From Bacteroidaceae bacterium (GTDB lineage: Bacteria > Bacteroidota > Bacteroidia > Bacteroidales > Bacteroidaceae), in assembly GCA_017546785.1 (NCBI GenBank), contig JAFYRW010000048.1, forward strand, positions 1 through 64,000: a DNA stretch of 64,000 nucleotides, read 5' to 3'. Below, in pieces: positions 4,615 to 48,240 of this stretch. Made by a program: the position numbers and the translations under genes. The stretch's first letter is position 1. Each line of letters begins with the position of its first letter. A model generated the notes under the pieces. The model worked only from the letters and a program-made list of their open reading frames with translations. It did not search any database and had not been told where the DNA came from.

Positions 4615-4937
4615 TCTAAGCATTGCAATAATGGCAGATATGCGCGCGTACTTATAATAACTACAAATTCGGTCTTTTATTGTGTGCGGGGCGAAACAAC
4701 TCTTTTTTACACCTTTTAGACAACCTTAAATTTTATTTTGTTTTTTAGGCAATTGCAGCAAAAAGCGACATTAAGGAGCAAAAATACACACTTCTTAATT
4801 CTTGATTATTAGCTCTTTATAATATTTTCTTTATAATATTTTCTTTATAATATTTTCTTTATAATTTAGCAAAAAATTTTAGCCATAAAACAGCTATAAA
4901 AAACTATAGAACAACTAAAATTCCACTTTATTTTTTT
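4615..4937. promoter_or_regulatory. AT-rich divergent intergenic region
   Basis: 323 bp between the divergent PorE-like and glycosidase genes. It is very AT-rich, particularly 4,700-4,937. The only distinct structure is the 14-bp tandem repeat listed separately. No clear TAnnTTTG promoter was found, although promoters for both genes must lie here. Confidence 0.5.
4815..4867. repeat. 14-bp tandem repeat upstream of the sialidase/GH123 gene
   Basis: The unit CTTTATAATATTTT occurs three times exactly (4815, 4829, 4843) and then as a partial fourth copy. It ends about 70 bp before the start codon of the large secreted glycosidase. The unit contains TATAATA-like sequence, so a change in copy number could alter promoter spacing. 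That is inference. Confidence 0.85.
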
Positions 4938-46691: not shown

Positions 46692-46793
46692 AGCACACGA
46701 ACAGGGAGGATACGGAAACGCCCTCACACATTCTATGGATTGTTGAGCACCTGTGACCGTGTGCTTTTTGTTTTTATATCATGCTCAACAATC
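46692..46793 (+). promoter_or_regulatory. Interleaved-stem leader controlling antirepressor 2
   Basis: AGCACACG (46692-46699) pairs with CGTGTGCT (46758-46765), and GATTGTTGAGCA (46738-46749) pairs with TGCTCAACAATC (46782-46793), which begins at the second base of the ATG. The stems interleave as in locus 1. The 12-bp stem would bury the start codon; binding of the short RNA to 46732-46751 would compete with it. Confidence 0.6.
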
Positions 46794-47548
46794 AAGTTCA
46801 AATCTTCCAGTACAATGGAAGTCCTGTTTCTTTTGAGAAAGGAGACAGTGTAATGGTCAATGCGACCGAAATGGCAAAAGCGTTTGACAAAACCACAAAA
46901 GATTGGTTACGCACAAAGTCAGCAGAAGAGTTTATAACCTCATTATCAGCCGTTAGGCAGATTTGCCCATCGGCTCTTGTTCAAGTAGTTAAGGGCGGTA
47001 ACGGAGAGCAAGGCACTTGGATGCACGAAGATGTTGCCCTTGAATTTGCCCGTTGGCTCTCTCCTGCATTCTCCATCTGGTGCAACGACCACATCAAAGA
47101 ACTCCTCACCACCGGTGTAACCACCGCCTCCGACGACGATGCCGCCATAGCCCACGCAATGGACATCCTACAAAAGCGTTTGGAGCAAGCCAAAGCCGAG
47201 AAACAGTTACTCGAAGCCAAGGCCCAAGAGCAAGAGCGCGTCATCAAGGAGCAGGCCCCACAGGTAGAGTACTATCAAAAAGTCCTCAACAGCGAAAGCA
47301 CCTACACCGTCACCCAAATAGCCAAAGAGTTCGGCTGGGGACCACAGACCCTCAACCGCAAGCTCAAGGAACTCGGCGTACAGTACAAGCAGAACGACCA
47401 ATGGATACTCAAAGCCAAGTACCAGAACAAAGGCTACACCGACACCATCACGCGCGAGCACAAAGACCACCTCGGCCGTCAGCGCACCTCCCTACAAACC
47501 GTATGGCGCGAGTCCGGACGCCAATTCATACACTCACTATTCGATTAA
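46781..47548 (+). CDS. KilA-N / KilAC antirepressor
   Basis: 255 residues. KilA-N domain at about 8-105 (VMVNATEMAKAFDKTTKDWL; WMHEDVALEFARWLSPAFSI), coiled linker at 125-160, KilAC domain at 170-255 (YTVTQIAKEFGWGPQTLNRKL). A DNA-binding phage regulator of the Ant type, different at its N-terminus from the Bro-N protein at 23037 but with a related C-terminus. Leader control as described. Confidence 0.88.
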   Translation: MLNNQVQIFQYNGSPVSFEKGDSVMVNATEMAKAFDKTTKDWLRTKSAEEFITSLSAVRQICPSALVQVVKGGNGEQGTWMHEDVALEFARWLSPAFSIWCNDHIKELLTTGVTTASDDDAAIAHAMDILQKRLEQAKAEKQLLEAKAQEQERVIKEQAPQVEYYQKVLNSESTYTVTQIAKEFGWGPQTLNRKLKELGVQYKQNDQWILKAKYQNKGYTDTITREHKDHLGRQRTSLQTVWRESGRQFIHSLFD

Positions 47549-47840: not shown

Positions 47841-47905
47841 TTTTAAACCCATTCCAAATAACAAATAAATACTGAAATAACATTTCAATATCTTAAGAAT
47901 ATACC

Positions 47906-47913
47906 TATATTTG
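47906..47913 (+). promoter_or_regulatory. Promoter of C4-like locus 3
   Basis: TATATTTG followed by CAATG. The -33 region (TTTC at 47883-47886) is a weaker match with a 19-bp spacer. Predicted start about 47918-47920. Confidence 0.65.
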
Positions 47914-47918
47914 CAATG

Positions 47919-48002
47919 AATTTACAAGTAAACGCTGCACCTCCTTTCGCGCAGCACCCTCTCGAGAGAATAAACCCAGTGGTAGGACACTGGGTTTTGT
48001 TT
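47919..48002 (+). ncRNA. Short terminated leader RNA, C4-like, locus 3
   Basis: About 83 nt ending in a 9-bp hairpin (47973-47981 with 47988-47996) plus T-rich tail. It carries three segments complementary to the downstream mRNA: 47917-47929 with 48074-48086 (13 bp, early codons; the first base or two may precede the start), 47938-47946 with the Shine-Dalgarno 48050-48058 (9 bp), and 47979-47990, the terminator loop and flanks, with 48216-48227 in the 3' terminator loop (12 bp). The first two are collinear and would span the start codon. Confidence 0.65.
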
Positions 48003-48049
48003 TGCATTCCTACGGCAAAACAACCAACAGACCGCAAGGTCAAAAAAGG

Positions 48050-48058
48050 AAGGAGGTG
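48050..48058 (+). promoter_or_regulatory. Very strong Shine-Dalgarno of the 43-aa gene
   Basis: AAGGAGGTG, 9 nt before ATG 48068; unusually complete for Bacteroidales. It is the target of the C4-like segment CACCTCCTT (47938-47946). Confidence 0.75.
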
Positions 48059-48067
48059 TAATGTGCG

Positions 48068-48199
48068 ATGGAAACTTGTAAATTCATAAATGGACAACTA
48101 TGCAAAGTTATTTTTGCTAAGTATATCCGCAAAGGCGGTAAAATCATTTATCCCAAAAACGGCAGAGCCTTTAGGTTCTATGTTCCCGTAGCGGACTAA
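48068..48199 (+). CDS. 43-residue basic protein under antisense control
   Basis: METCKFINGQLCKVIFAKYI, followed by RKGGKIIYPKNGRAFRFYVP and VAD. Basic and beta-like, with no membrane helix, so not a typical type I toxin. Strong ribosome-binding site; its start region is complementary to the preceding short RNA. By analogy with the other two loci it may act on the lysis-lysogeny switch or on a host target. No family recognised. Confidence 0.6.
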   Translation: METCKFINGQLCKVIFAKYIRKGGKIIYPKNGRAFRFYVPVAD

Positions 48200-48207
48200 T
48201 CCATTAT

Positions 48208-48240
48208 GTGCGGACGTGTCCTACCACCTCCGCACTTTTC
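48208..48240 (+). terminator. Intrinsic terminator of locus 3
   Basis: GTGCGGA (48208-48214) pairs with TCCGCAC (48229-48235), then TTTTCTTTT. Its loop holds GTGTCCTACCAC (48216-48227), complementary to the loop of the first terminator of this locus. Confidence 0.85.

What the first reader, a model, noticed from the sequence alone, without database searches (positions are those of the whole stretch)
47906..48240. Locus 3: terminated leader RNA complementary at three places to the mRNA it precedes
The short RNA (about 47919-48002) can pair with the Shine-Dalgarno of the next gene (9 bp, 47938-47946 with 48050-48058) and with codons 3-7 (13 bp, 47917-47929 with 48074-48086) in one antiparallel, collinear duplex across the start codon. 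The loops of its terminator and of the gene's 3' terminator are complementary over 12 nt. Three independent matches in 330 bp are hard to ascribe to chance. In P1/P7, C4 RNA is cut from the same transcript as ant and pairs at two sites to block it; this looks like a Bacteroidales counterpart controlling a 43-residue protein.
Basis: partly seen in the sequence, partly recalled or inferred. Interest (0 to 1): 0.85.

Follow-up and report, generated by a model that had tools for sequence, protein, structure and literature searches.

The report
Self-antisense leader RNA in Bacteroidota prophages
A prophage gene for a 43-residue protein is preceded by what looks like its own short antisense RNA, and related loci in other Bacteroidota keep the matching segments complementary while their sequence changes, which points to a real RNA switch that I could not find described, controlling a protein of unknown function.

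Summary
The leader (about 47914-48002) matches codons 3-7 (14 nt, one more than reported), the Shine-Dalgarno (9 nt) and, loop to loop, the 3' terminator (12 nt). Of 41 contexts of related small genes, 23 (window included) have such a leader by my reading. In a swap test of 19, picked by eye, 18 leaders pair best with their own gene (mean -35.9 against -18.9 kcal/mol; 0 of 20,000 permutations as good). Terminator loops are cognate too (0 of 20,000); in three exceptions both loops instead match neighbouring spacer segments. No Rfam family matches the leader, though a real c4-2 RNA lies 1.2 kb upstream, so it works like C4 without being a member. Most likely one promoter makes a terminated antisense RNA and, by read-through, an mRNA whose start is sequestered, silencing a basic, predicted all-beta protein. 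Transcription, action in trans and the protein's role are untested. Against: base-by-base comparison of seven related pairs shows more broken pairs (31) than two-sided compensations (6), and 18 contexts lack a clear leader.

The parts
47906..47913 (+). promoter -7 box TATATTTG (Bacteroidota type TAnnTTTG; consensus recalled)
   Evidence: Present in the sequence; an exact TAnnTTTG box precedes the leader in 17 of 19 loci, near misses in L108 and L114. Boxes were chosen by hand where several fitted; no chance expectation was computed
47914..48002 (+). leader RNA region (short antisense RNA; true 5' and 3' ends not known)
47916..47929 (+). segment a1, antisense to codons 3-7
   Evidence: 14-nt exact complement of 48074-48087
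47938..47946 (+). segment b1, anti-Shine-Dalgarno
   Evidence: 9-nt exact complement of 48050-48058
47972..47997 (+). terminator-like hairpin T1; 47979-47990 complementary to T2
   Evidence: hairpin -15.7 kcal/mol followed by a T-rich tract
48000..48020 (+). mid hairpin with loop TCCTAC (48008-48013), also complementary to the T1 loop
   Evidence: T1 x mid over 22 loci: 1 of 20,000 permutations as good
48050..48058 (+). segment b2, Shine-Dalgarno AAGGAGGTG
48068..48199 (+). small gene, 43 residues, basic, predicted all-beta
   Evidence: relatives
48074..48087 (+). segment a2, codons 3-7, target of a1
48208..48235 (+). 3' terminator-like hairpin T2; 48216-48227 complementary to T1

Best explanation
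One promoter makes a terminated antisense leader RNA of about 85 nt and, when polymerase reads through its terminator T1, an mRNA for a small basic beta-strand protein. The leader pairs with the Shine-Dalgarno and first codons, in cis within the read-through RNA and in trans as the free short RNA. Its terminator loop kisses the loop of the 3' terminator T2, or both loops kiss neighbouring segments of the spacer, tying leader and mRNA 3' end together. The net effect is translational silencing with locus-specific recognition, until the leader is lost by processing or decay. The unit is a self-contained insert, a 'moron', carried mostly by prophages. Shown: the complementarity, its conservation through sequence change, a promoter-like box, two terminator-like hairpins, gene context. 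Inferred: transcription, trans action, repression, release.
For: Swap test over 19 leader-type loci: own target best for 18 of 19 leaders and own leader best for 16 of 19 targets, mean -35.9 against -18.9 kcal/mol, 0 of 20,000 permutations as good; first 30 nt of the leader x codons 1-8 alone -17.3 against -6.0. T1 x T2 loops: cognate run sum 115, best of 20,000 permutations 99, shuffled-loop mean 68.9 +/- 3.8, 19 loci; with three later loci 128 against 113, 22 loci; a run of 5 or more in 16 of 22. Three loci without a T1 x T2 match (L109, L124, L138) have T1 x mid and T2 x mid runs of 7-9 nt, the anti-T2 segment lying before the anti-T1 segment in all three (read). In 19 of 19 predicted folds of the read-through RNA 12-33 of 36 nt around the start pair with the leader. 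Four loci met after the idea was formed (L123, L124, L126, L138) have start-region runs of 11-15 nt. Context.
Against: No expression data. Leader-type loci, promoter boxes and several hairpins were picked by eye before the tests. Base by base, seven related pairs show 31 broken, 15 one-sided and 6 two-sided pairs; the swapped duplex is weaker than both own duplexes in 5 of 7 pairs, not in L049/L075 (one direction) and L026/L128 (nearly identical). Duplex energy: L043 has 3 and L063 has 9 of 100 shuffles as low, and in L114 the best duplex uses another upstream stretch; L063 has three foreign targets at least as good as its own. Exact runs exceed all 60 shuffles in 16 of 23 leader-type contexts, not all. 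L039, L049 and L073 have T1 x T2 runs of only 4 (L049: 6 with G-U; L073: 9-nt T1 x mid). In L138 the two spacer matches overlap by 3 nt, and the T2 of L109 has a poor T tract. L126 shows no terminator in the leader (by eye). T1 tails are no poorer in T than T2 tails. RNAalifold found no shared structure in 11 aligned leaders. In 4 of 19 folds, the window's included, the start is not less accessible with the leader than without it. Eighteen of 41 contexts lack a clear leader.
Confidence: 0.72

Rival explanations
1. Cis-only control: the leader is just part of the mRNA and sequesters the start; T1 is an attenuator and the short RNA has no role of its own.
For: Leader and start pair in cis in all 19 predicted read-through folds; L126 keeps the pairing without a visible terminator.
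Against: A terminator-like hairpin between leader and gene is found in the 22 other leader-type loci (19 by script; 3 set by hand), which would make short RNA; the T1 loop is kept complementary to the 3' terminator or spacer in most of them.
Confidence: 0.18
2. Toxin-antitoxin-like addiction or abortive cassette: ToxIN-like layout (RNA, terminator, gene) but with an antisense antitoxin; loss or arrest of transcription frees the mRNA. Overlaps with the best explanation.
For: Layout promoter-RNA-terminator-ORF-terminator; carried by viral contigs and a plasmid; strict silencing predicted.
Against: Protein is basic and not hydrophobic (highest 17-residue Kyte-Doolittle mean 0.87 in 23 members); no PADLOC match in 22 members; 18 contexts lack a clear leader.
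Confidence: 0.22
3. IsrK-like activation: the short RNA turns on a read-through mRNA that is inactive by itself.
For: Same promoter-terminator-read-through layout as Gifsy-1 IsrK, whose downstream ORF has 45 codons (passages of PMC4825925).
Against: Here the RNA covers the ribosome site and first codons, so binding in trans replaces one block by another.
Confidence: 0.06
4. Chance or a DNA-level inverted repeat without RNA function.
For: Shine-Dalgarno complements are easy to find (5' UTR-only test: 6 of 19); breaks outnumber two-sided changes in related pairs.
Against: Swap and loop permutation tests; 16 of 23 leader-type but 0 of 18 other contexts exceed all 60 shuffles.
Confidence: 0.02

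Closest known systems
C4 antisense RNA of phages P1/P7 (Rfam clan CL00128, incl. c4-2 RF02944)
   Same: RNA and target in one prophage region, on one strand; complementary segments at the ribosome site of the gene downstream; sequence-specific recognition (P1/P7: passages of PMC12197685, otherwise recall)
   Different: No Rfam match; target is a 43-residue protein without ANT domain; terminator loop pairs with the 3' terminator
IsrK of prophage Gifsy-1 (PMC4825925, passages)
   Same: One promoter, short terminated RNA plus read-through mRNA, inactive long RNA, pairing between them, small downstream ORF
   Different: IsrK pairs with the 3' part of orf45 and activates; here the start site is covered, which predicts repression
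ToxIN-type (type III) toxin-antitoxin loci
   Same: RNA, intrinsic terminator and protein gene under one promoter (passages of PMC4147584)
   Different: ToxI is a repeat RNA that binds the protein; here no tandem repeat and the RNA is antisense to the mRNA
hok/sok-like type I toxin-antitoxin
   Same: Antisense silencing of a small-protein mRNA; mRNA end-pairing (passages and reference titles in PMC4147584)
   Different: Antisense comes from the same strand; protein is basic and not hydrophobic, toxicity unknown

Membership tests
C4 antisense RNA | Match to a C4-clan covariance model | tested here: not met
   Only 46692-46767 matches c4-2; 13 relatives' loci have no gathering-level match; no C4-clan match to the leader up to E 5
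C4 antisense RNA | Segments complementary to the ribosome-site region of a gene downstream on the same strand | tested here: met
C4 antisense RNA | Target operon encodes an antirepressor | tested here: not met
   No antirepressor match for the 43-residue protein in Pfam and no NCBIfam match
C4 antisense RNA | RNA cut from the ant transcript and active in trans | not testable with these tools
   needs RNA experiments
IsrK-type dual RNA | Short RNA ended by a terminator that a longer mRNA reads through | tested here: inconclusive
   Layout fits; no transcript data
IsrK-type dual RNA | Short RNA activates translation | not testable with these tools
   the pairing site predicts the opposite
Type III toxin-antitoxin (ToxIN) | Tandem-repeat antitoxin RNA | tested here: not met
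   Tandem Repeats Finder, score 30 or more, finds none in 47880-48240; relatives not scanned
Type III toxin-antitoxin (ToxIN) | RNase toxin | tested here: inconclusive
   No family match of any use in Pfam, NCBIfam or PADLOC, which does not exclude one
Type I toxin-antitoxin | Small hydrophobic toxin (feature recalled) | tested here: not met
   pI 9.6-12.0, GRAVY -1.16 to -0.02 in 23 members
Type I toxin-antitoxin | Toxicity relieved by the antisense RNA | not testable with these tools
   needs experiments
Prophage moron | Own promoter and terminator | tested here: inconclusive
   Promoter-like box and T2 hairpin present; activity not shown
Prophage moron | Orientation independent of flanking genes | tested here: inconclusive
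   Nearest ORFs of 80 or more codons: both on the opposite strand in 11 of 23 loci, the right-hand one opposite in 17 of 23, both on the same strand in 3 of 23; window itself: left same, right opposite

The most novel reading that the evidence does not exclude
A class of self-antisense prophage cassettes spread over the Bacteroidota: each locus has private recognition (start segment and terminator-loop code), so a resident copy silences only its own kind, as an immunity or addiction module. The leader terminator and the mRNA 3' terminator kiss directly or through a two-part adaptor in the spacer, an RNA arrangement that my searches did not meet elsewhere.
Probability: 0.3. Interest if true: 0.88.

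Novelty: new variant of a known kind. Interest (0 to 1): 0.72.

Why it matters
My impression (recall) is that little is known of antisense control in Bacteroidota phages; four literature searches aimed at such a layout listed no paper whose title or abstract describes it, while a fifth listed IsrK, which shares part of it. The 23 leader-type loci are natural sequence swaps, so specificity, cis against trans action and the purpose of terminator kissing can be tested directly. The work also points to an uncharacterised small protein family that seems to be kept under tight translational control.

Full report
What was claimed and checked. All three are there, the first being 14 nt rather than 13. 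The leader-to-start duplex is the strongest of 72 ORFs scored in the window, and its 14-nt run is the only one above 10 nt. The window is a stretch of contig C6 of a 2.0-Mb genome. A P22-like portal and, by reading only, terminase-like and lysozyme-like genes show that this part is a prophage.

Relatives. The 43-residue protein has relatives of the form FCRYIxKNGKxIYPKxxxFxF. They came from 399 family genomes (14 genomes at E <= 0.1, four other places kept as relatives; 5 genomes at E <= 1e-4), 393 order genomes (12 at E <= 0.01, four other places kept), viral contigs, the species-level genome collection (14 loci), one Parabacteroides plasmid and 395 class genomes (3 at E <= 1e-5); the window's own genome is included in each of these genome counts. 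Many are one locus fetched several times. Forty-one contexts, a few of them close relatives such as L042 and L046, were scored for complementarity: 23 have a leader by my reading and 18 do not. L128 is a near-copy of L026 and L093 of L049, and neither was counted. Among the 18, L066 and L135 may hold a degenerate leader by eye (L066 duplex: 3 of 100 shuffles as low). Leader-type loci whose record names a host are Bacteroidota: Polaribacter, Hallella, Tamlana, Bacteroides, Parabacteroides and unnamed Bacteroidota MAGs.

Conservation through change. Leader and gene start differ between loci but stay matched. For 19 leader-type loci the swap test gave -35.9 kcal/mol for own pairs and -18.9 for foreign pairs; 18 of 19 leaders and 16 of 19 targets prefer their own partner, and no permutation of 20,000 was as good. 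The signal does not rest on Shine-Dalgarno sequences: the first 30 nt against codons 1-8 gives -17.3 against -6.0, while the 5' UTR alone is far less specific (6 of 19). Leader-type loci and promoter boxes were chosen by eye beforehand, so the test measures specificity, not prevalence. Against 100 shuffles the duplex of 19 of 21 leader-type entries (two duplicates included) is matched at most once; L043 is matched 3 times and L063 9 times, and in L114 the best duplex uses another stretch. Exact runs beat all 60 shuffles in 16 of 23 leader-type and 0 of 18 other contexts. Base by base, seven related pairs gave 31 broken, 15 one-sided and 6 two-sided changes under a global alignment, so classical compensatory change is scarce; yet both partners form strong duplexes of their own, and swapping weakens them in 5 of 7 pairs. 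My reading is that pairs are re-formed in shifted register, which is inference.

Terminator kissing. T1 and T2 loops are cognate: sum of exact runs 115, best permutation 99 of 20,000, 19 loci; with L123, L124 and L138 added 128 against 113, 22 loci. Sixteen of 22 have a T1 x T2 run of 5 or more. Hairpins came from a script except T2 of L049, L108 and L109, T1 of L027, and both of L123, L124 and L138, which I set by hand. The T1 loop also matches the spacer between T1 and the Shine-Dalgarno (1 of 20,000 permutations as good). L109, L124 and L138, whose T1 and T2 loops do not match, have 7-9 nt matches of each loop to neighbouring parts of the spacer, overlapping by 3 nt in L138; T2 x mid is weak over all loci (478 of 20,000), and T2 of L109 has a poor T tract. 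L039 and L049 stay weak (L049 has 6 pairs with G-U). L126 has a leader but no visible terminator in it.

Mechanism. A TAnnTTTG box lies just before the leader in 17 of 19 loci, with near misses in L108 and L114; no chance rate was computed. In all 19 predicted read-through RNAs the leader covers part of the start region (12-33 of 36 nt), though in 4 folds, the window's among them, the start is on average not less accessible than without the leader. The short RNA would bind the same sites in trans. I therefore favour translational silencing with release when the leader is lost. Transcription, trans action and release are inferred.

The protein. It is basic (pI 9.6-12.0) and not hydrophobic, and predicted as a small all-beta fold (pLDDT 90.4, pTM 0.56) without a known match. 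L123, which has a leader, and the leaderless relatives L115, L118, L119 and L130 carry paired cysteines like a zinc ribbon (reading). In L118 and L119 the ribosome site looks hidden by a local hairpin (reading), so tight translational control may be a theme of the family.

Context. Nearest ORFs of 80 or more codons lie on the opposite strand on both sides in 11 of 23 leader-type loci and on the right in 17 of 23; in 3 of 23 both are on the same strand. L026 sits between a phage lysozyme and a holin, L103 beside a glucosaminidase. In the window the left neighbour on the same strand is the KilA-N/ANT antirepressor with its c4-2 RNA.

What is known. C4, IsrK, ToxIN and hok/sok each share part of this layout (passages of PMC12197685, PMC4825925, PMC4147584 and PMC2864571; abstract and outline of PMC12373285). 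None of these texts, as far as I saw them, combines a same-strand antisense leader with terminator-loop kissing. Nine literature searches ran in an open-access library, and I saw only their top listings, so 'undescribed' is a limited claim.

Noticed in passing
window 46692-46767 and 46781-47548: A c4-2 RNA (RF02944, 44.6 bits) with a 12-nt match across the start of a KilA-N/ANT antirepressor gene: a second antisense leader close to the first.
   Followed up: partly
window 48061-48081: A six-codon ORF (ATG ... TAA) overlaps the start of the 43-codon gene in another frame and lies closer to the Shine-Dalgarno.
   Followed up: no
L118, L119 (viral contigs), upstream of the small ORF: Zinc-ribbon-like relatives with an XRE-like regulator nearby (by reading); a local hairpin such as GTTCTCC ... 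GGAGAAC in L119 could hide the ribosome site.
   Followed up: no
L039 (viral contig), start of the small ORF: The reading frame has ATA where an ATG is expected, yet the leader match covers it.
   Followed up: no
L104 and L107 (viral contigs): Leaderless relatives, two in tandem in L107, beside a BRO-N-like gene and a large AAA-type ATPase (names from reading, not searched).
   Followed up: no
L122: A relative with an in-frame TGA inside the conserved core and no leader; looks like a decayed copy.
   Followed up: no
L132, about 4660-4690 and 4890-4910 of the reverse strand: No clear start-region leader, but an upstream hairpin loop is complementary to the 3' terminator loop over 7 nt (by eye).
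   Followed up: no
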